Source of the DNA: a virus
DNA length: 64,000 nucleotides
Virus record (IMG/VR): IMGVR_UViG_3300028610_001072
Location: 37,524 to 101,523 of that record
Reading direction: 5' to 3' (one strand)
The notes below the pieces were generated by a model. The model made no database searches, had not been told where the DNA came from, and worked only from the letters and a program-made list of their open reading frames with translations. Shown one piece after another: positions 36,005 to 62,964 of this stretch. The translations under genes were made by a program, and so were the position numbers. Every line of letters starts with the position of its first letter. The stretch's first letter is position 1.

Positions 36005-37597
36005 CTATACAACTGGATTGAATGTTGATTCGGTCCAGCGAATGTTTGTGTATAGGACATGGTATGTCCCGCCCACCCGTTCATTGATCAACTTCTGAAC
36101 TCGTAGATACATATACAGCATGTAGAGATATGGGAATCCCACGATGTTGTTAAGACCAAAGGCAAGTTCCATCCTTACGAATGGCATGAGCTGCCTGTAG
36201 TCCAACGCATCGGTTTCTTCTGCATTGGAGATCAAGATTGCACATGACGTTCCGGGCAGAATTAGGTTCAGGTCTACATACGCTGTGGTACTCACCGGGT
36301 TGGTGACTGCAACGTCCCCGATCCAGCGGCAATCGGTTGCGGCAGCCGCATTCATTGCACTACGATATACTGACAGGCCGGTAATGGTTGCGTCATTACA
36401 GGTAATTGTCAGGGTGACTTTTTGGCCCTGTGCCACAGTGATAGCTGCGGCTGTGGCTGTACCTATTGAAATACCGTCGGGATCAACCGAAGATACCACG
36501 TACCAGTAATCGCCTGCATCTCCTGCCCCAAACTTGGAGCTGGCATCGCTGGCGGTTGCGCCGGTTACGCCGGTAGGCTCTGCCGGTGCATTGGTAGTGT
36601 CCGGGAAGTCGGCTACCGGTGCCACTACATCGGCGGCTTCTCCACTCGGGAAGAAGGTATCAATCGAGCTTACAAATTTGAAGTGAGGATCGGCCTCACC
36701 ACCCCAACCTTGGAAAGCGAAATCGCTGTAGTAACCCGATGCGGGCTGACCAAGCAGTAAGTCTCGCGCTCCGGCCTGCTGGGCACCGGGTAGGTTTACC
36801 CGGCGGCTGACCGGCAAAATCTTGTTAAGGTCAGATTTGACCTTCGTTGGCATAAGCATGTGAGTTGCAATTCCGAGGTTAGTCAGAATGCGCTCGGCAC
36901 CCGTTTCCAACTTGTCTTCAGTAATGTCGCCCCCCTTACTGTAACTGGCAGTGCCAATGGCCCGGCAGTCTACGATACCGTCAGTCGCCCCTGCATTATA
37001 GGCGGCTAGTATCTTGGTGTAAAGGCCATCAAACTGGGTCGGCATCATTGCCGCATTCCCAAAGATGGTTGCCAGCTCGACACCTTCCAAAACGGTGACG
37101 GCTGCGGCGTTGTTGATGATCTGATGTTTCTCGGCGTAAGTCTTTGTAGTTTCAGCTACATGGGATAAATCTCGCATATCGCGGATAAATTTCGTCGAGT
37201 CAACTTTACGTTCTAATGTCACGTCGGAAACAATCGGGAATGCTGTTTCTGAACGCCACTTACCGTAGGCATGGCGCTTGACATTAGTACCGTGATCTGA
37301 TAATACCATCCACTGGTCAAGGACCGCATAGATGGGCTTTTTGCGAAGAAGGTTATAAACCTTCAATTGGCTCTTATTCTCGGCAGTCACTTTGAGCTCG
37401 GTATCGATATTCTCCACTGTGATCGCCCGGCCACCTGTCAGGGTGTCCAGATCGGTCATGTCGGAGCCAACACCTTCGCCCGCCACGAATGCTTTTTCGA
37501 GGCCGCGAGCCGAGAATTGAAGTGAGCCATTATCGAGCAACGACTTATTCAGTTCGTTGATCTGCTCGAAGCTCATACTCGGATTCAAGAGTTGCAT
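36005..37597 (-). CDS. Major capsid protein, HK97-type with inserted Ig-like domain
   Basis: This 530-residue protein lies directly after the protease-scaffold gene. The N-terminus (NKSLLDNGSLQFSARGLEKAF, then VAGEGVGSDMTDLDTLTGGRA) resembles capsid proteins with a KA-x-x-AG cleavage-type start. The body (YNLLRKKPIYAVLDQWMVLSD, TKFIRDMRDLSHVAETTKTYA, GYYSDFAFQGWGGEADPHFKF) and the C-terminus (RMELAFGLNNIVGFPYLYMLY) fit an HK97 fold. Residues ~332-450 form a threonine- and alanine-rich beta domain (GDYWYVVSSVDPDGISIGTA) inserted before the last part, probably an Ig/FNIII-like surface domain. TAGGAG precedes ATG. The cleavage site is proposed at K35-A36. Confidence 0.85.
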   Translation of the reverse strand: MQLLNPSMSFEQINELNKSLLDNGSLQFSARGLEKAFVAGEGVGSDMTDLDTLTGGRAITVENIDTELKVTAENKSQLKVYNLLRKKPIYAVLDQWMVLSDHGTNVKRHAYGKWRSETAFPIVSDVTLERKVDSTKFIRDMRDLSHVAETTKTYAEKHQIINNAAAVTVLEGVELATIFGNAAMMPTQFDGLYTKILAAYNAGATDGIVDCRAIGTASYSKGGDITEDKLETGAERILTNLGIATHMLMPTKVKSDLNKILPVSRRVNLPGAQQAGARDLLLGQPASGYYSDFAFQGWGGEADPHFKFVSSIDTFFPSGEAADVVAPVADFPDTTNAPAEPTGVTGATASDASSKFGAGDAGDYWYVVSSVDPDGISIGTATAAAITVAQGQKVTLTITCNDATITGLSVYRSAMNAAAATDCRWIGDVAVTNPVSTTAYVDLNLILPGTSCAILISNAEETDALDYRQLMPFVRMELAFGLNNIVGFPYLYMLYMYLRVQKLINERVGGTYHVLYTNIRWTESTFNPVV

Positions 37598-37652: not shown

Positions 37653-39269
37653 CTAGGCAGTACCCTTATCCAGTATCGTTTTCACTGTATCATATTCGCG
37701 TGTGCGATATGCATTCTCCGCTGTTGACATTTCGGAAGTCGTGATCTTCCCCGCCTCATTGGCAGTAGTCAAGCTCTTGGTGAGCTCACCGAAGGTTTTC
37801 GGAATACCTTCAGGACGACCAGTGGATGCGGCATTGCCGTCACCGGCACCCTCTTCGCCTAAGCCGAATTGTGAAAGGTCAACTGGTCCACCGGGACGCG
37901 ATTTCAGGATGACCTGAAAAGCTGTGCCTATCGGGACTTTTTTGTCGCCCTCACCGATATAGAGTGATTTCTCGACTATATCAATTTTGGACGCCAAGGT
38001 TTCACGCATTACTTCTACCTCACCCAGAGCCTTTGCCATAGCCTGATCTCTTTCGTGATCATAGGCAACTTTCTGGGTCAGGAGATTGGCTACATCACCA
38101 ACGCTTTTCTGGATGTCCATCAGCATCGGTCCTGCATCCAAGTATTCTTCACCATCTCCGTCACCGGGGATGGTTACAATTTCGTCTGCTTCTTCAAGGC
38201 CGCCACCGTCACCGGCTGGAACGGACTTGAATATACGTTCCCTGATTTCTGACATATTGGTAACAAGGCTCTTCAGTAATGAAGTGGGGGTCTCCGGGCC
38301 ACCACCACCGCCATCGCCGCCGCCATCGCCGCCGCCATCGCCGCCGCCATCGCCGCCGCCATCGCCGCCGCCATCGCCGCCGCCCTCTTCGGGGAACAGG
38401 GATTTTGCGAGCCTGCCCGCAACTTCTTCGTCATGTCCTTCATCGACAAAATGTTGTTTGGCCTGTTCTTCGGTTTCAAAAGTCTTCATCGGTAAACTCC
38501 CGTTTTCAGATTTTTTGAGTTTGTTTTTCTTCCGTGTTTTATCCTTAGAACCGGCTGCCTTAATCTGCTCAGCGGTCTCTTTGATCTCGTCGTCGATATT
38601 TTCCTTGGTAATGGCATCCACTCCAGTTTTCGATGCAAGATCGGTACTGGTTGGTGTGGCCGTCATTGCCTTTTCGACTTCTTCCTTGTAACCCAAGGAT
38701 TTGGCAAATCGTGCATGGTTCTCCTGAAGTGCATGGAGATATACAGATTTATTCACTGGGCTGGGGGTGATTACTACATTGACCACTTTCGCTTTGCGAT
38801 AGCCGCCTTTTTCGACTTTGCCGTCGGTGTAATTGCCTTCAACAGACCAGCCCAAAGTTTTTTGATTGTTGGGAAATTGGCGATTGTGCGTCTCGATGTT
38901 CTGGATCAACTGCCATACATCGTTTGAATATTTTCCGTCCGCGAACAGTGCCCCTTTGATCAGCGTCCCGCCTTCAGGGGTGGTGGCTCGCTCATGGGGA
39001 CACCCAATAATATGAGCCGGGTCATTCGCAACATGCTCATATTTGATCCAGCCCTGATCATCGAAGTATGAGAAATCGAGCGATTTACTGATCAGCCTCT
39101 CTTTGTCCTCATCCTCATTGGAGTTGGTTATCTCTCCCCAGATCAGTCGCCGGGTGATCAGTTTACCGCTGTCATCCGCCACCTTTTCCTTGGCCGAATC
39201 TACGGACTTTTGGAGATTGATCATCCCGTGTAGTATGAAGTCAGGTTGCTGCTGTTGTTCATTACTCAT
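37653..39269 (-). CDS. Prohead protease-scaffold fusion
   Basis: From ATG 39269 this is 538 residues; a TTG at 39287 in the same frame is an alternative. The N-terminal ~200 residues look like a prohead serine protease: DQGWIKYEHVANDPAHIIG with H79, and QKTLGWSVEGNY with S142 in a G-x-S-x-EG motif. The rest is helical, acidic scaffold-like sequence with a (GGGD)6 linker at about 295-320 and over ten hydrophobic-x-K-S/A tetrapeptides (FAKSL, VEKAM, LLKSL, IQKSV, MAKAL, VEKSL). These may be self-cleavage sites. Protease plus scaffold before the capsid gene is a standard order. No Shine-Dalgarno is visible before ATG; a terminator-like hairpin ends three bases upstream. Confidence 0.82.
   Translation of the reverse strand: MSNEQQQQPDFILHGMINLQKSVDSAKEKVADDSGKLITRRLIWGEITNSNEDEDKERLISKSLDFSYFDDQGWIKYEHVANDPAHIIGCPHERATTPEGGTLIKGALFADGKYSNDVWQLIQNIETHNRQFPNNQKTLGWSVEGNYTDGKVEKGGYRKAKVVNVVITPSPVNKSVYLHALQENHARFAKSLGYKEEVEKAMTATPTSTDLASKTGVDAITKENIDDEIKETAEQIKAAGSKDKTRKKNKLKKSENGSLPMKTFETEEQAKQHFVDEGHDEEVAGRLAKSLFPEEGGGDGGGDGGGDGGGDGGGDGGGDGGGGGPETPTSLLKSLVTNMSEIRERIFKSVPAGDGGGLEEADEIVTIPGDGDGEEYLDAGPMLMDIQKSVGDVANLLTQKVAYDHERDQAMAKALGEVEVMRETLASKIDIVEKSLYIGEGDKKVPIGTAFQVILKSRPGGPVDLSQFGLGEEGAGDGNAASTGRPEGIPKTFGELTKSLTTANEAGKITTSEMSTAENAYRTREYDTVKTILDKGTA
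38310..38384. repeat. 12-bp tandem repeat encoding (GGGD)6
   Basis: The 12-base unit gccgccgccatc is repeated about six times in frame within the protease-scaffold gene and encodes Gly-Gly-Gly-Asp. It forms a flexible linker. Such a perfect nucleotide repeat can change copy number by slippage without breaking the frame. Confidence 0.9.
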
Positions 39270-39272
39270 GGT

Positions 39273-39307
39273 AAAAAAAATGCCCAATCCCCCTGTGGGA
39301 ACTGGGC
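39273..39307 (-). terminator. Terminator-like hairpin (possible attenuator) before the head operon
   Basis: On the minus strand GCCCAGTTCCC pairs with GGGGATTGGGC (11 pairs, two G-U) around ACAG, followed by A and eight T. This is a textbook intrinsic terminator. It ends only three bases before ATG 39269 and lies downstream of the candidate promoter at 39367-39395. Transcripts from that promoter would stop here unless antiterminated. Confidence 0.7.
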
Positions 39308-51622: not shown

Positions 51623-52945
51623 CTACAGGCGGATCGGGATGATCACCCTGATTGACTTCTGCACTAATGCTAGTGCTCGTTTCAAATTTTCTGGCGCACT
51701 GGCATGTTCTAATATCTTTTCGACTCCAGCCTGATAGGTTCGATAGACATCCATCTGGCCGGTGGCTTTTTCCTTGAATGGCGGCGTACCGATGATCCGC
51801 CATTTCTGCCCGCCACGCTCGACAATGAATGACTTCCCTGTCACGTTGACTATTTCAGCACGGATGGGATGCTTATAGCGTTCATTGACATAGGTGGTAT
51901 AGCGTTTCTTTTTAACAGTGCGCCGCCCCCGTTGATCCTTGCCCCGGACAACTCTCGTCACATCCTTGCGAACTTTCTTCATCGGCTTGAACCGGTGGAA
52001 ATCACCTACCGTCTTCCTGACCTTGATTTTTCTAATGCCGCGCTTTTGGTCGAGCAACTTTGCCACAGTCTCGAATGATCGCGGATTCATCCCCCGGCTG
52101 CTTTCCGGCTTATCCACATAGAACCTGAGATACAGGACATCCCGCTCATCCGGGGTCAAGGCTTTCTCTTTTACCAGACTGGTTATTACCCTGTGGGTGG
52201 TCTCCCTGAGTTCCCGCTCCTCAATAGTCCACTTGCTCCAGAAAGCCACATCCTCTTCTTCAATGTGGGGAGTGGTGTCCATGTCATCGGTTAGCTGAGC
52301 GCCTTTGTAACCTTCCAGTGCTTCTATTCGGACAAGTTTTTCTTCCGGGCTTAATTCTACATATTCGCCATCGCGGGTTCGCTTATGCAGGATCACCATG
52401 TCGGCAAGGTCTTCCCGGCTGGGCTTCTCCCCGTTATTGAGCTTCATATATTTTTCAGTGGCACTGGAGATGATTGCCAATTGCCTGATCATATCTCTGG
52501 GGAGCTGGACCCCGCTACCCCGGAGCTTCTTAGCCATGAGCCGCATCCGTTGCTTGGCTCTGGTCTTCATCTGCATAAATTTCAGATCGCCGGTTTTCTT
52601 CGACCTGATTGCTTCCATCCCGCCAATGAGCATTCCCTGCTTGCCCTCAGAGATCAGGTCCGCAACATCTCCCACCGGCTGACCATCGATGAACCTCACA
52701 TCCAGCCCATGCACTCGAGCGATCTCTTTCCCCATGTAAACCAGATAGGCGATATTCTTTTGAATAATCCGCCCCAGTTCCTGCATCTGTGGCATGGTGG
52801 CTTTTAGCCGCATTTTCGGTGTTTTCCGGGCCTGTTTTGGTTTGCCGGTACGAATGTGTGCAGCAACCGGTTTCCCGCTCCTGACGTGCGCCCTGACGTG
52901 CTCAGGCTGGGCTTTTAGGAGTGTGGGGAGTTTAACGCGCTGCAT
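51623..52945 (-). CDS. Sigma70-like transcription factor with virion-type linker
   Basis: This 440-residue protein has sigma-factor features. DVADLISEGKQGMLIGGMEA (93-112) matches region 2.1/2.2, followed by a basic region (TRAKQRMRLMAKKLRG) and GVQLPRDMIRQLAIISSATE with NNGEKPSREDLADM (171-183), like regions 3.0/3.1. KALTPDERDVLYLRFYVDK (261-279) and a helix-turn-helix-like segment near 286-320 match region 4. The N-terminus (LLKAQPEHVRAHVRSGKPVA) and C-terminus (LALVQKSIRVIIPIRL) carry the linker and K-S/A patterns of the polyvalent proteins upstream, so it may be packaged and injected. It may direct host RNA polymerase to phage promoters such as the 46-bp repeats. The sigma call is good but distant. 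Confidence 0.75.
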   Translation of the reverse strand: MQRVKLPTLLKAQPEHVRAHVRSGKPVAAHIRTGKPKQARKTPKMRLKATMPQMQELGRIIQKNIAYLVYMGKEIARVHGLDVRFIDGQPVGDVADLISEGKQGMLIGGMEAIRSKKTGDLKFMQMKTRAKQRMRLMAKKLRGSGVQLPRDMIRQLAIISSATEKYMKLNNGEKPSREDLADMVILHKRTRDGEYVELSPEEKLVRIEALEGYKGAQLTDDMDTTPHIEEEDVAFWSKWTIEERELRETTHRVITSLVKEKALTPDERDVLYLRFYVDKPESSRGMNPRSFETVAKLLDQKRGIRKIKVRKTVGDFHRFKPMKKVRKDVTRVVRGKDQRGRRTVKKKRYTTYVNERYKHPIRAEIVNVTGKSFIVERGGQKWRIIGTPPFKEKATGQMDVYRTYQAGVEKILEHASAPENLKRALALVQKSIRVIIPIRL

Positions 52946-53159
52946 TATTTTTCTTTCTGACCTTCCGTGGCATTTTCACCGCTGGCATTTCCAATTCGGT
53001 CTTGCAATGCGAGCACATGCAAATTACAGCTCCGTTGACCTGATTGATAGTCATCGACTTAACCCGGTAGAACATTCGTTGGGGGTCCTTCGCGTCGGGC
53101 TTGGCAATCTTCAACGTGCAGGTAGGGCATCTACCGTCGGCTGTAAGTTTAACCGCCAT
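52932..53159 (-). CDS. Zinc-ribbon protein
   Basis: From ATG 53159 (AAGGG upstream) this is a 75-residue basic protein with CPTC and CSHC pairs about 36 residues apart (RCPTCTLKIAK, VICMCSHCKTELEMP), a probable zinc ribbon. It overlaps the previous gene by 11 bases and the sigma-like gene by 14. A nucleic-acid or RNA-polymerase-binding accessory of the sigma factor is possible. Confidence 0.75.
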   Translation of the reverse strand: MAVKLTADGRCPTCTLKIAKPDAKDPQRMFYRVKSMTINQVNGAVICMCSHCKTELEMPAVKMPRKVRKKNNAAR

Positions 53160-53451
53160 CCTGCCCTTCATTCTCAATTAATGCAGTATTCAGCTCCGCT
53201 GCATGGTGAAACATCTTCCGCCCACTCACAGCACCGGCGTATTCTTTTTGGAGCTTCTTATTCTCCGGGTTCTTTTCAAGTTGTTTCCCCAGAGTTACCG
53301 CCGCCCGTGCGGTCTGGTCATGTTTGCTGATGGCCTCTCCCCTGAGAGTCTTTAGGTCCTGTATGGCTTCGCTGCGCACTGTATCGCAGGTCTCCATCCG
53401 CTTGAGCAGTTTCGAGGTCATGGTTTTTTGCAGTTTCTCAGGCTTGGACAT
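53149..53451 (-). CDS. Small helical protein
   Basis: This 100-residue protein is almost wholly helical and charged (KLQKTMTSKLLKRMETCDTV, LGKQLEKNPENKKLQKEYAG). TAGGAGA precedes ATG, which overlaps the SNF2 gene by 14 bases. It might form a coiled coil. Unknown function. Confidence 0.7.
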   Translation of the reverse strand: MSKPEKLQKTMTSKLLKRMETCDTVRSEAIQDLKTLRGEAISKHDQTARAAVTLGKQLEKNPENKKLQKEYAGAVSGRKMFHHAAELNTALIENEGQDGG

Positions 53452-56400
53452 GAATTCTCCTATTTATCATAATTCGGGGGGACATCGATTTGGCTACTGG
53501 TTGGGATGCTGCTGCAACTTTCTGCTTCAGGACATTCATATCATCCAACTTCGATCCTTCATGCAGCATATTCATTACCGCTTTCTTTTCGCTTAACCGC
53601 TCCTCGGTAGCCATATCGTGCGGCGTATCGGTTAAGATTATGTGGCCGTGGACATCCTTATTCGCTCCCTTGCGATAGCCGCGACTGAAAAACTGATCCA
53701 TTGTTGACCAGCTGTGAGCACCGGACCCCATCGCTATTGCGGTTGTGGCTCCGTATGGGCGATCCGCTTCCCCAGTGTGCTGGAGATTTAATCCCTCAGT
53801 ACCGGCATCGGTATGGATCGCAAATAATACTTTGGGGTCTTTCAGGTAGGTTTCTTTAGCCTTGGCAATAGCTGCTTGACTTATGGCACGGCCATTCTTA
53901 TCCTGCCCGGCGAATCGCACCATCTTCTTACCCGGGTAGTTCGCCCGGATAAATTTCTCAATCTCATTCACCGTGCTGTAATTTTTCGCATACATCAAGA
54001 CCTTTTCCGTCGCTGCCTTGGTGGCAATATGATCATCGATGATCGATTTCATCTGGGCATATTTAGGATTAGTCTTGTGATCGGAGTCATTCAGAATCCG
54101 GCTGATGTGCTGGTCCCGGCTCATGGGATTGATCCGTCCCTTCAGGTATTTCTTCTGGATTTTCTGATAGTCGGCTTTCTGCTTTGGGGACAGCTCGGCG
54201 GTGTGGGTATTCATATGGAAGTTTGATCCTTCAACCTTTTTCTTTACGGTGAATATCCGGTCATCCAGCTCGGCATTCAGGATGTCTTGTAATTTCTCTT
54301 TCAGACCAGCTCCCTTGTGGAGATTTCGGTACTTCTCCATGAAGGCTTTTTTATTACCATATTTTTCCGGGTCCATGATATTCAGATGGAAATATAGCTC
54401 GCTCAGGTCGTTGGGAGTGGGGGTCCCGGACCCCGTTACATAGTACGGTACTTCCTTGGCGATCTTCGCTAACCCACGGCTCATTTGACTGCCAGTTTCG
54501 GGACCTTTAGTTCCGGCAACATCCCGTTGGGTGATCTTATGCCCCTCATCAGCCACCACCATATCGAAGCCAGCGTCTTTAACCAGATCGTGATCGAAGT
54601 AGAATTTTTCCTTATTCACCAGCACAATATAAGAGGGGTCCGCCTTGTAGGCTTCGGCGCGTTTCGATTTATCGGCGTAATCTACTTGCACCACTTTATA
54701 ATCGGAAAACTTCTCCACTTCCTCAGCGAAATTGGGCATCAACTTTTTAGGCATGGCAATAACTGTTTTCACCGGTTTACCGGTGGTCTCTTCAAGGTGT
54801 GCTTTCTGAAGGAGATACGCCAGCGATTTCCCGGTTCCCGCCTCGAAATTCAAATAGACCTTTTTCTGGAGTCCGATAAATCGGGCGGCGGCCTGTTGCT
54901 CGGGTGTCGGTATGATCTTGGTCATGGTGCCATCGGCATTTTCGATATAGGGCTTGATGCCGGTGGGTAGCCAGTCCTGCTCATTTTCACGGAGACTCTT
55001 AATGCTCTGGGGACTCGGCTCCCTTCCTAGTTCCTTGAATTGAGCCACGACTTTTTCATTGATTAGTTTTTCGTATGCCTTCGCTTTGATGATCATCGTA
55101 TAATCGCCGTGGCCGTGGCGCTCGATGTTGACATCACCCTTATTTAATCCCAGTTTATCGATCTTGGCATTTAATGCCTGTCGATTCGAGCTCTTGATTG
55201 TCAGGTCCTTTTTGTGGCTCTGAAATTGGTACAGGAGCTCGGCGGCCATGTGCAGACCACCTTCGGCTTGACCATACGCGAGGTATGCCCGATTTACATA
55301 AGCCAGCTTGGCGGCTGATCCCTGCTGACGGGTAGCGAATAGCATATCCTTGCCCTTGGCAAATTTCGTGACGTGCTGCGCTCGCTCGAGATACTTATCA
55401 CCTTTATTGACGGCATCGAGGGCAATCTCATTACCCTTGTCCTCAATGTATTTCTGATAGCGGCCAACCGATCCGGCGTAATCCTCTTCCCCTAGAGTAT
55501 TCCGTAGATAGTAGTCTGCCAGTATGGCGGCGTTAGCTGCGCCAAGTTCATTCATAAAGTCTTCATTGATGATACTGGTGCCAGCCATTTCGCCGGTGAT
55601 GCCGTTGATGGCTTCGATTGATCCCTGAGCGATCATCTTATCCATATCCTTCCGCTCAGCACCTTTGCTCTCAATTTCCTTACCATTCTGATCGATCCCG
55701 CCACGGGTGTTGACAATCAGGGTATAGTGAGCGGCAATCTCATCCCGCAATGCTTTCTCATCCTCGACCATCCGCATTAGGTCCGCACTGGTAATATCAG
55801 AGACTCCTACAATGTCTGAGCCAGCGTGTGTTACCATGCCGGTACGGAGCTGCTTATTAATGACCTTCAACTCCCGCTCATGCCCCTTGATGGCATAATG
55901 GGCTTTCAGGAATTCTTCTGCATTCTCCCGGATCACCTGAGCAATACGTTTCTTCTCGGCATCGTGCTGGTCATCGATACCAACCTCATCCCCCAACATG
56001 ACCTTTTTGGCATCCTCGATGATGCTATTCAATGCCCGGCGGCGTTCATTGGCAATCTTGTTGATTTCCTTCAGTCGCTCCCCCCGCTGCTCGGGCTTGG
56101 ACATCTTCTCAATTCTTTTCTCGATGGCCGCCCGTTCCTTGGCAGTGACTTCAGTTTCGACGCCAGCTTTTTCCCGAACCATTTCATGTAGTTTCCCCTT
56201 GGCCTCAGTGCGCTTCGCACCTACCTCTTCCTTGCGAGTTGCGAGTTTTTCAACATCTTCTTCGGCCATCTCTTCCCGGCGTTTCGCACGGGCGTCTTCC
56301 TTCGCCTGTTTGGATTTTTCCCGTGCCAGCTTGGCCTCTTCGGTGTCAGCCTCTTTTTTCTTCGGCTGTAGGATTTTGTGGGTGAGACCTGATTGCTCTG

Positions 56401-57145
56401 GTGCCCAGACTATTGAGGCGGTCCCGTTGGCATGAGGCATTATCAGGATATGGCGGCCATGTAGAGGACTGCTGGCATCCGTGATCGTAACCCAGCGAGC
56501 ACCGGGATGCTGGCGCATGATATTTGCACTCCAGCTCTTTTCCATCTCCTGCGGATTTCCGTGCCGCCCAGCTTTTACCCTGTATTTCTTTTTCGATTTG
56601 GGATGCGTGAGATAGAACTCACCCCCCTTACAAGTATGATCCTTGTGCATCGAATAGTAGCAGCCCTTCCGCATAATCGATGATCCCCGAGCCACCAATA
56701 GAGGGCCGACTTTATTGAGATTGAGGTTTGCTGTTCTGCCCTTTTGTAGATCGGGGACCATTGAGATCGACTTCCCAAAATTCTTTAGTTTCTCCTGATA
56801 GATACCGGCGGCTTTCTTCCAGAATGCCTTATACTCATCCTTGGCCCATTTCGGAGCCATGGCACTGTCATATACTGACCACTGCTGCATCGACTGTTCG
56901 CTACCGTTCATGTGTGGCTTCAGCCAGATAAACGATGATCCCACCATCTTGGCGCTCTGCTGGGCCAGTGCCAATTTCTTCTGCAACTCCTGCTTGGTTT
57001 CACAGGCATTCGCCCATTTGCGGTGAGCACTGATACCGGTATTCATGGCCGCCTGTCGGACCTGTTGCGCTGCCCGGTTATAGGATGATACCCGGATCAT
57101 CAATCCTGATCTCAGCTTACGTGCATGTCCTTTGACTTGACTCAT
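53438..57145 (-). CDS. SNF2-family helicase-like polyvalent protein
   Basis: This 1235-residue protein has three parts. Residues 1-270 are basic and include KGCYYSMHKDHTCKGGEFYL and SPLHGRHILIMPHANG. Residues ~275-740 are long, charged helices and coiled coils. From ~745 it is an SNF2 superfamily 2 translocase: Walker A EAGTGKS (K773), DEGH (866-869), VTGSGTPTPNDLSEL (motif III), HTDAGTEGLNLQHTG and QFFSRGYRKG (motifs V/VI). The C-terminus has PVAKSMSPRIMINRR. SNF2 engines move along DNA and remodel protein-DNA complexes; in phages such large proteins can be injected to counter host defence, as DarB of P1 is. Located between ParB-like and sigma-like genes, overlapping the former by ATGA. Confidence 0.88.
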   Translation of the reverse strand: MSQVKGHARKLRSGLMIRVSSYNRAAQQVRQAAMNTGISAHRKWANACETKQELQKKLALAQQSAKMVGSSFIWLKPHMNGSEQSMQQWSVYDSAMAPKWAKDEYKAFWKKAAGIYQEKLKNFGKSISMVPDLQKGRTANLNLNKVGPLLVARGSSIMRKGCYYSMHKDHTCKGGEFYLTHPKSKKKYRVKAGRHGNPQEMEKSWSANIMRQHPGARWVTITDASSPLHGRHILIMPHANGTASIVWAPEQSGLTHKILQPKKKEADTEEAKLAREKSKQAKEDARAKRREEMAEEDVEKLATRKEEVGAKRTEAKGKLHEMVREKAGVETEVTAKERAAIEKRIEKMSKPEQRGERLKEINKIANERRRALNSIIEDAKKVMLGDEVGIDDQHDAEKKRIAQVIRENAEEFLKAHYAIKGHERELKVINKQLRTGMVTHAGSDIVGVSDITSADLMRMVEDEKALRDEIAAHYTLIVNTRGGIDQNGKEIESKGAERKDMDKMIAQGSIEAINGITGEMAGTSIINEDFMNELGAANAAILADYYLRNTLGEEDYAGSVGRYQKYIEDKGNEIALDAVNKGDKYLERAQHVTKFAKGKDMLFATRQQGSAAKLAYVNRAYLAYGQAEGGLHMAAELLYQFQSHKKDLTIKSSNRQALNAKIDKLGLNKGDVNIERHGHGDYTMIIKAKAYEKLINEKVVAQFKELGREPSPQSIKSLRENEQDWLPTGIKPYIENADGTMTKIIPTPEQQAAARFIGLQKKVYLNFEAGTGKSLAYLLQKAHLEETTGKPVKTVIAMPKKLMPNFAEEVEKFSDYKVVQVDYADKSKRAEAYKADPSYIVLVNKEKFYFDHDLVKDAGFDMVVADEGHKITQRDVAGTKGPETGSQMSRGLAKIAKEVPYYVTGSGTPTPNDLSELYFHLNIMDPEKYGNKKAFMEKYRNLHKGAGLKEKLQDILNAELDDRIFTVKKKVEGSNFHMNTHTAELSPKQKADYQKIQKKYLKGRINPMSRDQHISRILNDSDHKTNPKYAQMKSIIDDHIATKAATEKVLMYAKNYSTVNEIEKFIRANYPGKKMVRFAGQDKNGRAISQAAIAKAKETYLKDPKVLFAIHTDAGTEGLNLQHTGEADRPYGATTAIAMGSGAHSWSTMDQFFSRGYRKGANKDVHGHIILTDTPHDMATEERLSEKKAVMNMLHEGSKLDDMNVLKQKVAAASQPVAKSMSPRIMINRRIHVQA

Positions 57146-58305
57146 GCTGCGGCTCCAACTTTAATTATGGTCTCCAATGATTTGCGAGCTTTCCGGCGGC
57201 GGCGTTTCCCCTTAATCCCCTTGGCATTCAGGTAGCCGTCAATGGTGCCGCCACTCTCGAAAAACTTCTGAGCGAATTGCATTTCCCGGTCCAGTTTCTT
57301 CATCTCTTCATTGATGAGAGCCACCTTGCGGGCAGTGACGGCCAGCTTGCCTTTTTCCTTCGCTAGTGCAGGAATGATCTTCGCGCCGTTCTTTTCGCTT
57401 ACTCGATCCATTAGGCTTCCGAAGTCATCCAGTAATTTCCCAAGGTCGCGCTCCAGTGAATTCCTGCGCTGCTTTGTGATCCGCTGGCCGATGGTGTTAC
57501 CCTCGATGCTAAATAGCCCGGTCTGGGTCTGTGAACTTTGATAGCGGCCAACCATCCCCCGTAACGCTTCAGTGGAGATTTTTCCCATATTCAGCCGCTT
57601 GATAATATTCTGCTGGTAAGCTGGTTTAAGGTTTGCGGTGGATATGATTTCCGCCCGGCGTACTGTCATTGAGCCATGCCTCACCATCTCCTGCAACTGG
57701 GGGATCAGGCTCAGGAATGATATGCGCCGCTCAACCGTCACTTTGGATGTGCCAACCGCCTCAGCTATATCGTCCGCCGTTGCGCCGGTGTCAACCAACT
57801 TTTGATAGGCTGTGGCCTCTTCCATCGGATTCATTTCCTCACGGCCAACATTCTCCGCCACCTGAATCTCAGCAATTTCTTTCTCGTCGGTAATGTGATA
57901 AACCTTCGCATTGGCGATTTCAACCCCTGCGATCTGCATGGCTCTCCAGCGCCGCTCCCCTGCGATCAGCATGTAGTCGCCTTTAAGGTCCGGGTGTGGC
58001 CGGATTACAATATCCTGTAGTAGTCCTATTTTTTTAATACTGGCGGCCAGCTCCTTCAATTTGCCTTCATCGAAGTGCTCCCGTGGCTGGGTAGGATCGC
58101 GGTGGATCGCGCCAACCGGCACCTGAGCCTTACTGGTTTTCGCCTCGACCTTGACAAGCTGCTTCCCGCCGAAAAGGTCCTCTGGATATTCGTACTGGTA
58201 ATGGCCGGGCGCACCGATTCGCTTGGTGTATTTATGACCGGGCTTCATTGTGCCGGTAGCACTCTTCCTGAGTCTCGACTTGATTAAGATTTGAACGCCT
58301 TCCAT
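57142..58305 (-). CDS. ParB-like DNA-binding protein
   Basis: This 387-residue protein has a ParB/Srx N-terminal domain with the PTQPREHF box (71-78), GERRWRA (116-122) and ENVGREEMNPMEEA (151-164), the motifs that bind CTP in ParB. These are followed by a helix-turn-helix (ATADDIAEAVGTSKVTVERR) and a long helical C-terminus. The N-terminal 45 residues (LIKSRLRKSATGTMKPGHKY, then RIGAPGHYQYEYPEDLFGG) form a linker found on phage polyvalent proteins, with a K-S site. In phages ParB-like proteins may act in DNA segregation, gene regulation or anti-restriction. AAGGAA precedes ATG; there is a 22-base overlap with the upstream gene. Confidence 0.88.
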   Translation of the reverse strand: MEGVQILIKSRLRKSATGTMKPGHKYTKRIGAPGHYQYEYPEDLFGGKQLVKVEAKTSKAQVPVGAIHRDPTQPREHFDEGKLKELAASIKKIGLLQDIVIRPHPDLKGDYMLIAGERRWRAMQIAGVEIANAKVYHITDEKEIAEIQVAENVGREEMNPMEEATAYQKLVDTGATADDIAEAVGTSKVTVERRISFLSLIPQLQEMVRHGSMTVRRAEIISTANLKPAYQQNIIKRLNMGKISTEALRGMVGRYQSSQTQTGLFSIEGNTIGQRITKQRRNSLERDLGKLLDDFGSLMDRVSEKNGAKIIPALAKEKGKLAVTARKVALINEEMKKLDREMQFAQKFFESGGTIDGYLNAKGIKGKRRRRKARKSLETIIKVGAAA

Positions 58306-58571
58306 AATTCCTTCAGTATATATCCCAGTCCTGTTAATGCCAGCAGCGCAGTGCCGCTATCTTTTGCCATATTCGTAACTACTTGCGTAACCGTCTTGAC
58401 TTCATCGGCGGCCACATGAATTGCATCCGGCATAAATACTCTGACCGTGATAATCGCGCCTGCCAACATAACCCCAACGGTTATATGTTGCCGGTGTTTC
58501 TTGATAGCAGCCAGCTTTGCAGCCTCTCGTTTTTTAGCCCGCTCACGCTTGGCTTTGGTTGACAATTTCAT
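58284..58571 (-). CDS. Small membrane protein
   Basis: This 95-residue protein has a very basic N-terminus (KLSTKAKRERAKKREAAKLA), then a membrane span (HITVGVMLAGAIITVRVFM) and a second weak one (SGTALLALTGLGYILKELW). It could sit in the inner membrane. It overlaps both neighbours. A DNA-entry or superinfection role is possible but not shown. Confidence 0.7.
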   Translation of the reverse strand: MKLSTKAKRERAKKREAAKLAAIKKHRQHITVGVMLAGAIITVRVFMPDAIHVAADEVKTVTQVVTNMAKDSGTALLALTGLGYILKELWKAFKS

Positions 58572-60274
58572 CGTGCGCCTGCTTTGGTCCTGCCCATAAT
58601 TATTATGGATTTCTGGACTCCGGTATAGGTCATACCCCGAGCACTGTAATAGCCCTGCCCTGTCTCGAATACTGCATCGAGTAACTGGTATCCTGATGGT
58701 TTGAAATATTTCTCAGCCGTTTCTCGATAGGCGTGTGCATCTCGGGCGCTGGGATGTGATCCCACCGTGATGCAATTCACGGACCCTGTATCGAGCATGT
58801 GCTTCATTAGGGCCTTGCTGTACTTCGTCTGGGTGGCACTGAGATTCAGGTGATTATCTCCCAGTAGAAAAAATCCCGTGACATTATTCTGCCCGTTTAG
58901 GGTGATCCCCCAGACCCCCTTCCCATGCTCGGCTTGTATCCATTTCCCTAACCGAGCAGCGTCTTGGGCTGAAGTGACCGCCATATCTGGCATACCTGAA
59001 GGAGCTGATTCTCGGCTTGTCACCTTGATTTCGGAAATGGGATGCTCAACCCAGCTACGTTTTTGCGTTGGGACGTAATCGTCTTTAGCCCTGTCAATGT
59101 ATGGCTCAAATGTGGTGAAGGTTAGCTTGCCACCATGAATGATAACATCGCCCTGATGTTCAATCCCGAATTTCTTGGCGAAGGCTTTTATCCTGTCAGT
59201 GATGGCATAGTCGTCCCGTGAGGGATTAGGGCTGCCTGATGGGTGATTGTGAATTCCCCAATACTTCTTTGCCTTATTGGCTCTCAATACGCTGAGGATC
59301 ACCCGTGGATCAACTGTTGAATCGGTTATGCCGCCCATGCTATGCAGTTCGACTGATATGAGTTTATCATCCTTATCCGTGCCAACTACCCAGTATTTTT
59401 CCCGTGCGTCATCCCGCATACTTTTAAATATCGCGGCTATATCTCCAGCCTTCGTGATCTTGGTTCCCGGTACTTTAATTGACCCGGTTGGCATGGCTCC
59501 GACTTTTACGAAGGACATTCCCTTGATTTTACGGGACTTACCTTTTTTGGTCCGGCTGTCCTGATGCTCACGGACAGTTGTAATCTTACCAGATTTCGTG
59601 TGCCGGAGATGGGTTTTAATCTTGGCCTTGATCATCTGGGGCTTATTCGCCGTCGCCAGTACCTTCGGCTTGAACTTATCGAAGGTCATGGTGGTGCAGC
59701 TCATAAACATATCGCGGCGGTCATAATTCTTTAGATAATCCTCAATGGCCTGCTCTCTCGATCTCCAGCCCAACATGCACTTGTCTTCATCATACTTGCC
59801 GGTTTTCACATTCCTTTGATGGATCACGTACACCTTTGGAGCATTCGGCTCGGGACCCATAAAGCAGTCTACATGATCTTTATCAACTCCAGTAGTCCCC
59901 CGGATGTAGCCATAATCGAAATGGAGCAGGCTTCGCCATTCGTTCCCGTCGGGGTCTTTCCCAGTTCGATAGGTCCCGGCGGGATTCTCTATGGAAATTT
60001 TCAGACCCCTGAAAGTCAGACGTTTGCGGATAGGATGCCCGCTCCATGTTTTCGACTTCAGTAAAATTTGGGGGATAGGCGGAATACGGTTATCACCCCG
60101 CACCCCGTCCCTATCCCCTCCGCCCTTGGAAGCACTCACACTCAAAGCTTTTTCCAGTTGTCCAGATATAATCAGATCATGGACATCCGGCACTCCAGCT
60201 AAGGGGACGCCTAAATAGACATCCCCCTCTGCACTCAGGCAGAACCGGTCGCCGTTTGGGGTAGAATTATTCAC
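58568..60274 (-). CDS. Inorganic pyrophosphatase-like plus JAB/RadC polyvalent protein
   Basis: This 568-residue protein, GTG start, is modular. Residues ~75-215 (GLKISIENPAGTYRTGKDPD, HFDYGYIRGTTGVDKDHVDC, then KCMLGWRSREQAIEDYLKNYD) match the pyrophosphatase-like domain seen in polyvalent proteins. Residues ~270-390 are a RadC/JAB domain with HNHPSGSPNPSRDD (about 341-354), the JAMM metal motif. Residues ~455-565 look like a second JAB-like unit with GSHPSARD and no first histidine. Between them is the linker KTHLRHTKSGKITTVREHQ. Several K-S/A sites occur (LLKSK, IFKSM, VQKSI). It overlaps the 896-residue gene as TAGTG. Likely delivered with the genome; exact substrate unknown. Confidence 0.82.
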   Translation of the reverse strand: MNNSTPNGDRFCLSAEGDVYLGVPLAGVPDVHDLIISGQLEKALSVSASKGGGDRDGVRGDNRIPPIPQILLKSKTWSGHPIRKRLTFRGLKISIENPAGTYRTGKDPDGNEWRSLLHFDYGYIRGTTGVDKDHVDCFMGPEPNAPKVYVIHQRNVKTGKYDEDKCMLGWRSREQAIEDYLKNYDRRDMFMSCTTMTFDKFKPKVLATANKPQMIKAKIKTHLRHTKSGKITTVREHQDSRTKKGKSRKIKGMSFVKVGAMPTGSIKVPGTKITKAGDIAAIFKSMRDDAREKYWVVGTDKDDKLISVELHSMGGITDSTVDPRVILSVLRANKAKKYWGIHNHPSGSPNPSRDDYAITDRIKAFAKKFGIEHQGDVIIHGGKLTFTTFEPYIDRAKDDYVPTQKRSWVEHPISEIKVTSRESAPSGMPDMAVTSAQDAARLGKWIQAEHGKGVWGITLNGQNNVTGFFLLGDNHLNLSATQTKYSKALMKHMLDTGSVNCITVGSHPSARDAHAYRETAEKYFKPSGYQLLDAVFETGQGYYSARGMTYTGVQKSIIIMGRTKAGAR

Positions 60275-62964
60275 TACAGCCCGTACTCATGGAGATCATA
60301 CTCCGACAGTTTGTACTTCTTTTTCGGGTCCAGATTCCGGGCGATCCTATCCAGCTTCTCGATCCTCTGGCGTAGGTTGCGAAGCCTGTACGGCTCTACG
60401 GGTGGCTTCGCGTCTGTCTCCACAGATGCCGCCATGTCGGGTGCCATTTCATTATTATCGGTTGGCGTCGGCTTTAGCCCGGCCCGCCATTCAGCTAACC
60501 CTCGCAGGAGATCGCCCTGACATTCACCAATTTTGCAGCGTGTGGCAAATATAATATCCTTCCCGCTCTTCGTGAATTCGAGAGACTTGGAAAGCTTGCC
60601 AACCTCGACCGCTTTTTGAAGGACTGGATATTGATTCATGTCGATGGATTTCTTTGCGGGCTGTTTCCGAGCGGCTTCAATCATAGCTGCTTCTTTGGCG
60701 GCAGCCCTTTCAGGATTCTTTTTTCGATCTGCCTTGGTCGGGAGACCTGCATCGGCCCTATGCCCCTCCCATTTGCTTTCATGGTGAGCCGACCTTTCAT
60801 AGTGATGTTCATATTTGGATGAACCTTTTTTATGCCTTTTTAGCCGCTCGTCGTGATGCTCCATTCTGGCTTTATGGTGCTCAGCCATCTCTACAAAATG
60901 ATGTGTCCCCCCGTATTGATGGGCTGACACGAATCCACGCTGACCCGGTTTCCGAGTCTTTTGATGTTCCCGGACGGTTGTAATCGTTCCTGATTTGGTC
61001 CGGCGCTGATGTTGCTTGACTGTCCCGACTGCTTTTTGCAGTAGGGGGTATTTATCGAGATCATTCATTGTTCCGCTCTCCATTGATTTCTTAGCTGATG
61101 TGTATGCCGCTCTGAATTCCTTGAGTCCAAGATAGCCCTCTGTTTGTGCTGGAGTTAAGCCAAATTCTTCCCCCTTCTTATGGAGATTGGTGAGCGTATC
61201 CGCAGCACCTTTTTTGTTACCAGCCTTGAATTGCTGGATGTACTCATTGGCCCATTTTCGCATTCCTACCCTATCCTCGAGGGGGATTTTATTTTCCTGT
61301 CCTCGGTGCTGGGTTTGATGTTCCCGGACGGTTGTGATCTTCCCTGATTTGGTCCGGCGTTGATGCTGCTTGACCGTGCCGACTGCCTTTGCCAGCAGGG
61401 GGTAATTTTCGAGGCCATTCATATCTGACTCCATTGACTTCGTGAATCGGGGTGTGCCATGCTTCTTTTTTAGCAGCTCGAATGCCAGATCGGATACCTT
61501 ATAGATATTGAATCCATCGCCGGTTGTATCGGTTTTTTTAATACCCCGGCCTTTCAATTCGATATTGGTCGTGAGATAAATCGATCCATAATGACCGTAT
61601 TCATAGTCCCATACTCCGGGACGATCACCGGTGTACTTTTTCTTGTATTCGGATTCCATGTTATCAATTCTGGTCTGGAGTAGTTTTCTCTTCCCAGATT
61701 CTTTATCACCGATCCGGTTCCGTTTTTCCTTCAGGCTATTGATAGCCTTTCTGGCTGTGAGCTGCTGGGCAGCTTTTTGGGATTCAGCGTGACCAATATC
61801 CGCTTTTTCTCGGGCTGTTATTAGCGCCTTATCTTTGCGCCGTTGCTCGTCATGGGTTAAGGATTCTCCCGTATTATTATACTGAAATTCCCCGTGCTGC
61901 TGCTGTATCTTTTTAAGTGCTGCCTCGGTGACACTATAGGTTTTCAGCCCGAGCCGGTGATCACTGCCATCCCCTGACTGTCTGATTCCCCGCCCTTTAA
62001 GGTCCAAGTGTGTTGTGACGTAGTAGTCTCCCCCGTGGGATACTTTATATTCCCGGACCTGTGCCGGTTTCCCTGTGAATGGCTTCAAGTCGGATTCCTT
62101 GGGCAGTGCTTCTCTCAGAAAGTGGCTCCGTTGATTAACATAGTGCTTCGCCTCAGCGTTGGTCATCTTGCCGGTGTATTTGAAATGATCTATTATTTCG
62201 GCGTCTGATGAGCTCTCGTCATTGGATAGGACGGACGCAATCCATTGACGTTTCAGGCCATCTTTTTGCTTCTTAGTCCGGCTATCGGTGTGCTCCCGGA
62301 CAGTGCCAGTTTTACCGCTTTTGTAATGACGGATGTGCGCTACAACCTTGCCCTTCCGCAATAACATCATTGCTTTGCCCATAGTCCCCAGACTGGTAGC
62401 CATTCCGGTGTGCATCTCAATGACATCCGTGAGCATATCGTTATAGATACCCTTGGCGTCAGTGACCTTTTTGTACGTTGGTCCTTTGGTGATCCGTCCA
62501 AATTCCACATCGTAGGTATCCACCGCATTTAGGGTGATCCTGATCATGTGGATGCTGCTGGAGTTCCGGCCAATCCTGAATTGGAGATAGGCATCGCCGT
62601 TCTCATGGGTCCCGGCTCCGTAGCCTTTGGCACCGATCATGTACAGGGCTTGCCTACCAATTTGCTTCTGGATAGTGTGAGCCACAGCCAGCGCATATTT
62701 ATTATCGGCGGCTCGCCTCTTCTGGCGGCTGTCTTCATGCTCCCTGACATTGACCACCTTACCCGCTTGGCGGCGCTGGTGAGCCTTAACATGAGCTTTG
62801 AGTAATATGGGTTGCATGGCTTTCTTCCCCTTCATCTGTTGGTAGATGCCCATCGTGTAAGCATAGAATTCGTCGGAGCCTTCGGATTTCGTTTTCCGGG
62901 CAATTCCCTTCGCCTTATTCCACAGGTGCTCATCACGTTCGTTTTTGACGACGTTGGTTGGCAT
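60274..62964 (-). CDS. Modular repeat protein, polyvalent protein-like
   Basis: This 896-residue basic protein is built of modules joined by four copies of an H-x-R...GK...VREH linker (near 57-80, 210-230, 530-550 and 650-670). Two copies share longer repeats with YPLLAKAVGTVKQHQRRTKS and YPLLQKAVGTVKQHQRRTKS. Two related domains contain DYYVTTHLDLKGRGI (about 310-350) and SIYLTTNIELKGRGI (about 455-495). The N-terminus (ERDEHLWNKAKGIARKTKS, EFYAYTMGIYQQMKG) resembles MuF-associated polyvalent proteins. A His-rich region (about 690-750) follows, and the last ~90 residues are acidic then basic. It may be a polyprotein cut by the head protease. No enzyme motif is visible. Confidence 0.75.
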   Translation of the reverse strand: MPTNVVKNERDEHLWNKAKGIARKTKSEGSDEFYAYTMGIYQQMKGKKAMQPILLKAHVKAHQRRQAGKVVNVREHEDSRQKRRAADNKYALAVAHTIQKQIGRQALYMIGAKGYGAGTHENGDAYLQFRIGRNSSSIHMIRITLNAVDTYDVEFGRITKGPTYKKVTDAKGIYNDMLTDVIEMHTGMATSLGTMGKAMMLLRKGKVVAHIRHYKSGKTGTVREHTDSRTKKQKDGLKRQWIASVLSNDESSSDAEIIDHFKYTGKMTNAEAKHYVNQRSHFLREALPKESDLKPFTGKPAQVREYKVSHGGDYYVTTHLDLKGRGIRQSGDGSDHRLGLKTYSVTEAALKKIQQQHGEFQYNNTGESLTHDEQRRKDKALITAREKADIGHAESQKAAQQLTARKAINSLKEKRNRIGDKESGKRKLLQTRIDNMESEYKKKYTGDRPGVWDYEYGHYGSIYLTTNIELKGRGIKKTDTTGDGFNIYKVSDLAFELLKKKHGTPRFTKSMESDMNGLENYPLLAKAVGTVKQHQRRTKSGKITTVREHQTQHRGQENKIPLEDRVGMRKWANEYIQQFKAGNKKGAADTLTNLHKKGEEFGLTPAQTEGYLGLKEFRAAYTSAKKSMESGTMNDLDKYPLLQKAVGTVKQHQRRTKSGTITTVREHQKTRKPGQRGFVSAHQYGGTHHFVEMAEHHKARMEHHDERLKRHKKGSSKYEHHYERSAHHESKWEGHRADAGLPTKADRKKNPERAAAKEAAMIEAARKQPAKKSIDMNQYPVLQKAVEVGKLSKSLEFTKSGKDIIFATRCKIGECQGDLLRGLAEWRAGLKPTPTDNNEMAPDMAASVETDAKPPVEPYRLRNLRQRIEKLDRIARNLDPKKKYKLSEYDLHEYGL

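What the first reader, a model, noticed from the sequence alone, without database searches (positions are those of the whole stretch)
51623..62964. A cluster of possible virion-delivered proteins marked by shared linkers and K-S/A tetrapeptides
Five successive large genes (896-residue repeat protein, pyrophosphatase-JAB, ParB-like, SNF2, sigma-like) each carry hydrophobic-x-K-S/A tetrapeptides at termini or domain junctions (ILLKAH, LLKSK, LIKSR, VAKSM, LLKAQ, VQKSI). Three of them also carry variants of an H-x-R...GK...VREH linker. The same tetrapeptides occur more than ten times in the protease-scaffold and as LEKAF at the capsid N-terminus. From established knowledge, head proteases cut scaffold, capsid and packaged proteins at common sites, and polyvalent proteins are thought to travel with phage DNA. 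I infer that these proteins are packaged, cut at K-[SA], and released into the host as a takeover set: transcription, DNA remodelling and anti-defence.
Basis: partly seen in the sequence, partly recalled or inferred. Interest (0 to 1): 0.9.

Follow-up and report, generated by a model that had tools for sequence, protein, structure and literature searches.

The report
Head-protease-cut cargo polyproteins of a phage
This virus of bacteria appears to mark a set of helper enzymes with the same short cut site that its head-building protease uses on the shell and scaffold, so that the enzymes can be packed into the particle, trimmed, and probably sent into the next host with the DNA; this would let us read a phage's delivered proteins directly from its genome.

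Summary
Hydrophobic-x-K-[SA] occurs 14 times in the 544-aa protease-scaffold (1.4 expected) and 25 times in the five cluster proteins (12.4 expected; P=0.003). It is not enriched in tail or accessory proteins. Four of five cluster proteins carry it near a terminus, against 6 of 103 others (P=0.0002). Total counts are enriched only in the 568- and 896-aa proteins.

Comparative evidence identifies the motif as the maturation cut site. Capsid Lys35 aligns with the Lys after which Listeria phage A511 capsid is cut; phage 812 and HK97 mature capsids also begin with Ser after Lys. All 77 relatives with a callable capsid gene have LxK[AS] near its N-terminus. In relatives with the same gene order, unrelated enzymes between portal and protease (SNF2, pyrophosphatase, methylase, HD) and others elsewhere (Nudix, ADP-ribosyltransferase) begin with a short peptide ending hydrophobic-x-K|[SA]. 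The H-x-R...V-x-x-H "linker" usually follows such a site directly.

Best reading: cargo tags and polyprotein junctions cut in trans by an SPO1/HK97-type head protease. Packaging is likely; ejection and takeover are inferred, without virion data. P1, whose protease lacks these sites, lacks the tag on DarB. I found no earlier description of this cargo code.

The parts
60274..62964 (-). 896-aa cargo polyprotein: N-terminal helical segment, phrog_9437 domain (94-192), two copies of a ~70-aa domain (around 305-375 and 453-520), His-rich region, 4 H-x-R..VREH modules and 8 hydrophobic-x-K-[SA] sites
62794..62805 (-). predicted cut site LLK|A (residues 54-57 of the 896-aa protein), start of mature N-terminus AHVKAHQRR
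62725..62790 (-). module 1, VKAHQRRQAGKVVNVREHEDSR
   Evidence: E=1.6e-5 (seed member)
62278..62346 (-). module 2, VVAHIRHYKSGKTGTVREHTDSR, 10 residues after K197
   Evidence: seed member
61384..61446 (-). inter-domain spacer with a site at each end, FTK|SMESDMNGLENYPLLAK|A (507-527), followed by module 3
61309..61374 (-). module 3, VKQHQRRTKSGKITTVREHQTQ
   Evidence: seed member
61030..61095 (-). second spacer, AKK|SMESGTMNDLDKYPLLQK|A (624-645); first site has Ala at P3
60952..61020 (-). module 4, VKQHQRRTKSGTITTVREHQKTR
   Evidence: seed member
60610..60657 (-). third spacer, AKK|SIDMNQYPVLQK|A (770-785)
58568..60274 (-). 568-aa InPase - RadC/JAB cargo polyprotein
   Evidence: Pfam InPase 6e-42 and RadC 7e-25
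60053..60064 (-). predicted cut site LLK|S (71-74), N-terminal edge of the InPase domain
   Evidence: aligned hydrophobic-x-K-S in nearly all embedded homologues; edge of the confident fold in the model
59666..60025 (-). inorganic pyrophosphatase domain (residues 84-203)
59624..59635 (-). predicted cut site MIK|A (214-217), C-terminal edge of InPase; homologues P-x-M-[IV]-K-[SA]
59552..59620 (-). H-x-R module IKTHLRHTKSGKITTVREHQDSR, 3 residues after the cut Lys
   Evidence: E=2e-7 (seed member)
59126..59455 (-). RadC-like JAB domain (274-383)
58607..58618 (-). predicted C-terminal cut site VQK|S (553-556), releasing SIIIMGRTKAGAR
57142..58305 (-). 387-aa ParB-like cargo (ParB_N + HTH_ParB)
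   Evidence: Pfam 4e-22 and 2e-13
58276..58287 (-). predicted N-terminal cut site LIK|S (7-10)
53438..57145 (-). 1235-aa SNF2 helicase cargo
   Evidence: Pfam 6e-13; phrog_62 3e-40
57071..57136 (-). divergent H-x-R module at the SNF2 N-terminus, VKGHARKLRSGLMIRVSSYNRA
   Evidence: E=1e-4 (seed member)
56534..56545 (-). predicted cut site MEK|S (201-204) just upstream of the GARWVTI segment, the place where relatives' SNF2 proteins carry the N-terminal tag
   Evidence: SW score 60; 0 of 2000 shuffles reach it
53486..53497 (-). predicted C-terminal cut site VAK|S (1217-1220)
51623..52945 (-). 440-aa sigma-like cargo (weak sigma region 4 match)
   Evidence: Pfam E=0.007, below cut-off
52910..52921 (-). 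predicted N-terminal cut site LLK|A (9-12), best-scoring cargo site under a matrix built from relatives only
   Evidence: 8.66 bits
52844..52897 (-). divergent H-x-R module VRAHVRSGKPVAAHIRTG, 6 residues after the cut Lys
   Evidence: E=1.5e-3 (seed member)
51653..51664 (-). predicted C-terminal cut site VQK|S (428-431)
37653..39287 (-). head maturation protease fused to scaffold; 14 sites
   Evidence: phrog_1028 2e-20
36005..37597 (-). major capsid protein
   Evidence: phrog_752 3e-49; homologue of SPO1/812 capsids in PDB
37490..37501 (-). capsid maturation site LEK|A (33-36)
   Evidence: Lys35 invariant and aligned with the A511 mature-end Lys

Best explanation
The cluster encodes head cargo, some of it as polyproteins, processed in trans by this phage's SPO1/HK97-type head maturation protease, which cuts hydrophobic-x-K|[S/A]. 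Step 1 (shown by homology): the protease matures capsid and destroys scaffold at this site. Step 2 (strongly inferred): short N- and C-terminal peptides ending or starting at the same site on ParB, sigma-like, SNF2 and InPase-RadC act like T4 capsid-targeting sequences, bringing the proteins into the prohead, and are then trimmed. Step 3 (strongly inferred): internal sites at domain junctions split the InPase-RadC and 896-aa proteins into single-domain products, some with an excised ~15-20-residue spacer. Step 4 (inferred): the 20-25-residue V-x-x-[HY]-x-R...[GD]G/GK...V-x-x-[HY] module that follows the cut becomes the new N-terminus and may be a packaging, DNA-binding or ejection handle. Step 5 (inferred, unproven): the products are ejected with the DNA and act early (transcription, DNA remodelling, nucleotide and anti-defence functions).
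For: Enrichment and terminal placement in this genome. Anchors for cutting after Lys: A511 annotated mature capsid starts S after ALK; the 812 mature chain lacks exactly 24 residues and so starts S25 after VVK; HK97 mature chain starts S104 after FNK. Lys35 of the window capsid is one of 20 invariant columns in nine capsids. 77/77 metagenomic relatives have LxK[AS] near the capsid N-terminus; their proteases carry 18.5 sites/kaa vs 1.8 in tail-side genes, while the R version is 0.7. Same gene order in Bordetella phage PHB04 and partly in others, with tags on non-homologous cargo. 28/28 SNF2-like proteins have the site 7-11 residues before the conserved RWITV segment, with variable flanks. InPase: hydrophobic-x-K-S at the 5' edge in nearly all embedded homologues; at the 3' edge when another segment follows, mostly absent when the protein ends there. 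The module follows a site within 12 residues in 27 of 31 hits, including nearly all hits not used to build the model. Closed genome (144-bp terminal overlap) puts the cluster right after portal/minor head.
Against: No virion proteomics for this phage. The per-gene comparison of relatives (76/211 vs 17/456, P=3e-27) is inflated by homology; with families counted once it is 17/104 vs 10/125 (P=0.04). Many upstream 'ORFs' there are mechanical. Sites also occur inside folded domains. Part of the K-S at the InPase 5' edge could belong to the domain: the free-standing L118 starts MAKTFSGY. Total site counts in SNF2, ParB and sigma are not above chance. Two of the three 896-aa spacers start AKK|S, which does not fit hydrophobic P3.
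Confidence: 0.8

Rival explanations
1. The hydrophobic-x-K-[SA] segments on cargo are docking motifs that bind the scaffold or protease during prohead assembly and are not cut; only scaffold and capsid are cleaved.
For: Terminal hydrophobic tags would suit docking; scaffold and portal carry the same motif. P3 hydrophobic and P2' Leu could be a helix-binding pattern.
Against: The same Lys is the actual cut position in A511, 812 and HK97 capsids. Internal copies fall at InPase domain edges and are largely missing where the protein ends at the domain, which fits processing better than docking. Docking and cutting are not exclusive.
Confidence: 0.12
2. The K-[SA] tetrapeptides in the cluster are chance matches in lysine-rich proteins, and the shared linkers are remnants of duplication.
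For: SNF2, ParB and sigma have no more sites than shuffled copies; the two VKQHQRRTKSG repeats in the 896-aa protein look like recent duplicates.
Against: Terminal placement P=0.0002; conservation at the same junctions in distant phages while flanks change; control motifs with R, D, Q for K show no positional enrichment, E only weakly.
Confidence: 0.03
3. Cargo is processed and packaged but stays in the particle, with structural or assembly roles (for example prohead core, DNA condensation), and is not an injected takeover set.
For: P1 DarA/Hdf line the inner capsid and affect head size (PMC12810830). The His- and Lys-rich 896-aa protein has no recognisable enzyme.
Against: SNF2, pyrophosphatase, RadC, ParB, methylase, Nudix, ADP-ribosyltransferase and HD domains in the tagged sets are enzymes that would act in a cell; P1 and T4 internal proteins are ejected (PMC12810830; T4 from general knowledge).
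Confidence: 0.2

Closest known systems
T4 internal proteins (IPI-III, Alt) with capsid-targeting sequences cut by gp21 (own knowledge; reviews listed)
   Same: Head protease shares one motif among scaffold, capsid and packaged proteins; short N-terminal targeting peptide removed; the packaged set can include an ADP-ribosyltransferase
   Different: Cut after Glu (L/I-x-E) in T4; here after Lys before Ser/Ala; different protease and scaffold lineage; here multi-domain polyproteins with internal junction sites and C-terminal tags
phiKZ / SPN3US ejection proteins cut by gp245-type protease (PMC10052503)
   Same: Many internal proteins, several with propeptides cut by the prohead protease at a common motif; presumed ejected
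   Different: Motif A-x-E, mostly long N-terminal propeptides; no polyprotein junction cutting described in the passages read
Polyvalent proteins (Iyer et al. 2017, PMC5512222)
   Same: Multi-domain proteins with InPase, RadC, ParB, SNF2 and methylase domains, thought to travel with phage DNA
   Different: That paper proposes self-processing by a fused metallopeptidase domain; none was found here and the cuts are predicted in trans by the head protease. [quoted passage not shown] here both are in one polypeptide
P1 Dar system (DarA, DarB, DdrB, Hdf)
   Same: Packaged, ejected antidefence set; DarA cut by the head protease Pro; DarB is a methylase-helicase comparable to the tagged methylase-helicases of PHB04, L040 and L041
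   Different: P1 Pro has no K-[SA] sites and the DarB N-terminus has no tag
SPO1 / A511 / phage 812 (Herelleviridae) and HK97 head maturation
   Same: Homologous capsid (and protease, for SPO1-type) with capsid cut K|S; scaffold full of the same sites in SPO1 (11 in 244 aa)
   Different: I did not look for a tagged cargo cluster there and know of none reported

Membership tests
SPO1/HK97-type head maturation protease system (K|S/A) | Homologous protease upstream of a homologous capsid | tested here: met
   phrog_1028 E=2e-20; phrog_752 E=3e-49; tblastn to SPO1-like proteases; PDB capsids SPO1 and 812
SPO1/HK97-type head maturation protease system (K|S/A) | Capsid matured by cutting after Lys before Ser/Ala | tested here: met
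   By alignment only: Lys35 invariant and at the A511 mature-end Lys; not shown biochemically for this phage
Head-protease-processed internal (ejection) proteins, T4/phiKZ kind | Scaffold, capsid and cargo share one cut motif | tested here: met
Head-protease-processed internal (ejection) proteins, T4/phiKZ kind | Cut after Glu (T4 L-x-E; SPN3US A-x-E) | tested here: not met
   Motif here is x-K|[SA]; so it works like this kind but is not a member of the T4 or phiKZ protease lineage
Head-protease-processed internal (ejection) proteins, T4/phiKZ kind | Proteins present and processed in virions | not testable with these tools
   Only indirect: depositors' 'particle associated' notes on tagged ART and Nudix of phage fHe-Yen8-01, in a broad list
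Head-protease-processed internal (ejection) proteins, T4/phiKZ kind | Ejected into the host | not testable with these tools
   No infection data
Polyvalent proteins (Iyer 2017) | Several unrelated effector domains in one polypeptide next to late genes | tested here: met
   InPase + RadC in one protein; relatives InPase + helicase, methylase + SNF2, LPD1
Polyvalent proteins (Iyer 2017) | Fused metallopeptidase (MPTase) domain for self-processing (common, not universal, in the family) | tested here: not met
   No such Pfam match in the five proteins
P1 Dar system | DarA/Hdf/DdrA/DdrB/DarB/Ulx homologues | tested here: not met
   No Pfam or PHROG match to DarA, Hdf or Ulx in the cluster

The most novel reading that the evidence does not exclude
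Across a wide range of SPO1-like and PHB04-like phages, hydrophobic-x-K|[S/A] is a general address-and-cut code for head cargo. Any late protein with the site at its termini or domain junctions is packaged and split in trans by the head protease into single-domain effectors, many of which then expose a conserved N-terminal handle (V-x-x-[HY]-x-R...G...V-x-x-[HY]). The code would allow the injected protein set of such phages to be read from sequence, and it may have been missed because trypsin cuts at the same residue.
Probability: 0.6. Interest if true: 0.88.

Novelty: new variant of a known kind. Interest (0 to 1): 0.78.

Why it matters
Phage-delivered proteins that disarm a host at the first minute are mostly unknown because they cannot be told from ordinary genes. 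A short, checkable cut code tied to the head protease would name them from the genome alone, in phages of Bordetella, Pseudomonas, Aeromonas, Morganella, Yersinia and many uncultured relatives. It proposes a new way to process polyvalent proteins (the head protease in trans rather than a fused peptidase). It also warns that ordinary tryptic proteomics cannot see the cuts, since trypsin cuts after Lys too. The tag would be a natural starting point for loading foreign proteins into such phage heads.

Tried and rejected
Searches for close relatives of the 896-aa, protease-scaffold and sigma proteins in viral contigs found none. The sigma-like protein: no PDB sequence match, NCBIfam only a spurious hit, single-sequence model at pLDDT 38, so its identity stays open. 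P1 as a positive control failed: no K-[SA] tag on DarB and no sites in Pro; used as a contrast instead. InPase proteins of phages with other head genes (Serratia WR01, Agrobacterium Atu_ph07, Bacteroides BF1-TP2) have no flanking sites, while Leptospira LE1, whose proteins next to the annotated capsid are rich in F-x-K-S, has F-x-K-S in its InPase protein. The HxR module has no Pfam family. Signal peptide or membrane anchor considered and rejected for tags such as MKPILFLKA (7-8 residues before the cut). Literature searches found no description of a K-[SA] cargo code; most subscription papers are not held.
Full report
Where it is. The window is the last 64 kb of a 101,523-base virus record. 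The record's ends share an exact 144-base overlap, so the genome is closed. Read on the minus strand, the order is: portal and minor head (at the record start), then across the join to a few small genes, the 896-aa protein, InPase-RadC, ParB, SNF2, sigma-like, about 12 kb of other genes, protease-scaffold, capsid and tail.

Observation. All quoted peptides exist. The motif [LIVMF]-x-K-[SA] is ten times more frequent than expected in the protease-scaffold (14 vs 1.38) and twice as frequent in the five cluster proteins (25 vs 12.4, P=0.003). It is slightly below expectation in tail, accessory and other genes. The total count is significant only for the 568- and 896-aa proteins. For ParB, SNF2 and sigma the point is position: a site within 15 residues of the N-terminus or 20 of the C-terminus in 4 of 5 cluster proteins against 6 of 103 others (P=0.0002). 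A weight matrix built only from relatives' proteases and scaffolds places sigma K11 as the best cargo site and SNF2 K1219 and K203 among the top ones.

What the motif is. The protease belongs to the SPO1-like head maturation proteases (phrog_1028; tblastn) and the capsid to the SPO1/812 type. In Listeria phage A511 the annotated mature capsid starts SFTTGYG after ALK. For Staphylococcus phage 812 the PDB chain of the mature capsid lacks exactly the first 24 residues of the full-length entry, so it starts at Ser25 after VVK. In HK97 the mature chain starts at Ser104 after FNK. In an alignment of nine capsids, Lys35 of the window capsid is invariant and lies at the A511 cut. So Lys at P1 with Ser/Ala at P1' is the maturation site of this protease group. 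That is shown by homology, not by experiment on this phage.

Relatives. Bordetella phage PHB04 has the same order (portal, minor head, cargo, protease, scaffold, capsid; small genes between) and its cargo starts MKPILFLK|AS (SNF2), MIILLTK|AQ (methylase), MGAVVLLK|AD (InPase) and MIVFLK|AQ (the annotated (p)ppGpp synthetase/hydrolase). In the whole PHB04 genome the tag is 5/15 in this block against 4/109 elsewhere (P=0.001), and one of those four begins LFLK|SHVAGYMR, the tag plus module. Aeromonas ST4, Morganella Mecenats66 and Yersinia fHe-Yen8-01 carry tagged Nudix proteins, and the last two tagged ADP-ribosyltransferases; protease and scaffold have 5-7 sites each in all of them and in the Pseudomonas phages. 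SPO1 scaffold has 11 sites in 244 aa. Of 80 metagenomic loci, 77 had a callable capsid and all 77 have LxK[AS] near its N-terminus. Proteases have 18.5 sites per kaa against 1.8 in genes on the tail side, and the tag is in 76/211 upstream against 17/456 downstream genes. Replacing K by R, D or Q abolishes the contrast; E gives only a weak one. That count is inflated by homology: with each family counted once it is 17/104 against 10/125, P=0.04, and many mechanical ORFs are included. The stronger argument is site conservation within and across families. In 28 of 28 SNF2-like proteins the site lies 7-11 residues before the conserved RWITV segment while the residues before it vary in sequence and number. 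The window SNF2 has that segment internally (alignment score 60, no shuffle of 2000 reaches it), with MEK|S about 14 residues ahead of the RW.

Junctions. The InPase domain is the best test of polyprotein cutting because it occurs alone and fused. Its C-terminal edge is P-x-M-[IV]-K-[SA] or a close variant in most homologues near this phage. In a second, distant set of contigs its N-terminal edge is hydrophobic-x-K-S in nearly all embedded copies. A site follows at the C-terminal edge when more protein follows and is mostly missing when the protein ends there. One caution: a free-standing copy (L118) starts MAKTFSGY, so part of the K-S conservation may belong to the domain. In a structure model of the 568-aa protein the confident region runs from about 74 to 218, bounded by K73|S and K216|A. 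The alignment rows cover only that part, so low confidence elsewhere is not evidence of disorder. InPase proteins of phages with other head genes lack flanking sites. P1, whose protease has no such sites, has no tag on DarB.

The module. A small profile found 31 distinct copies at E<0.1; 27 have a site within 12 residues upstream, commonly the Lys 3 residues before the module. Seed sequences are among them by construction, but nearly all the hits outside the seed show it too. It is in four of the five cluster proteins and has no Pfam family. After cutting it would be the new N-terminus. Its function is unknown; a packaging or ejection handle is my guess.

Mechanism. Protease-scaffold and cargo assemble in the prohead; terminal tags bring cargo in; the protease, activated in the prohead, destroys scaffold, matures capsid and trims and splits cargo. 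The 896-aa protein even has spacers with a site at each end (FTK|SMESDMNGLENYPLLAK|A and two like it). Cutting of capsid and scaffold rests on homology. Cutting and packaging of cargo is a strong inference. Ejection and takeover are inference from domain content (SNF2, ParB, InPase, RadC; methylase, HD, Nudix and ART in relatives) and from P1 and T4. Tagged ART and Nudix of fHe-Yen8-01 are labelled particle-associated by the depositors, but so are many other of its genes, so this is weak.

Against known systems. It works like T4 and phiKZ/SPN3US internal proteins, but the motif has Lys, not Glu, at P1 (SPN3US A-x-E, PMC10052503), so it is not of those lineages. It fits the polyvalent idea (PMC5512222), but that work invokes a fused metallopeptidase, absent here by Pfam. 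I found no report of a K|[SA] cargo code; subscription papers could not be checked.

Verdict. Observation confirmed; interpretation supported up to processing and probable packaging, open beyond. A new variant of a known kind with a sharp experimental test.

Noticed in passing
window 1-64000 with L002 (record start): The virus record has an exact 144-base overlap between its two ends, so the 101.4-kb genome is closed and portal/minor head abut the cargo cluster.
   Followed up: yes
window 40773-42230 (-): A GHKL/HSP90-type ATPase-like protein near the protease gene (Pfam HATPase_c_3, E=4e-5, just below the cut-off).
   Followed up: no
window 45000-46001 and 47617-48591 (-): Two PAPS-reductase-like genes between cargo cluster and protease.
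   Followed up: no
window 60274-62964 (-), residues about 305-375 and 453-520: Two copies of a ~70-aa domain (GG-x-YY-x-TT...LKGRGI) in the 896-aa protein, without a Pfam or PHROG match.
   Followed up: no
L051:1492-7803: A tagged InPase-helicase polyprotein of a relative appears to contain an intein (PF14890) in the helicase part.
   Followed up: no
L009:1390-6341, L011:1811-9556: In Mecenats66 and fHe-Yen8-01 a tagged giant ADP-ribosyltransferase protein is near a tagged Nudix hydrolase, recalling T4 Alt and NudE.1.
   Followed up: partly
relatives' portal C-termini, e.g. L006:4551-6218, L071:217-1938: Portals end with a conserved [LM]-x-K-[SA]-F-G-[LI]-P peptide: a possible C-terminal cut or docking tag on the portal.
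   Followed up: partly
L099:4193-10019 (Leptospira phage LE1): Two proteins just upstream of the annotated capsid and the InPase protein favour F-x-K-S, hinting that cargo sites co-vary with protease preference.
   Followed up: partly
L007:402-1193, L117: Some tags read LLKGH or FLKGH followed by the module, so Gly may also be allowed after the cut Lys.
   Followed up: no
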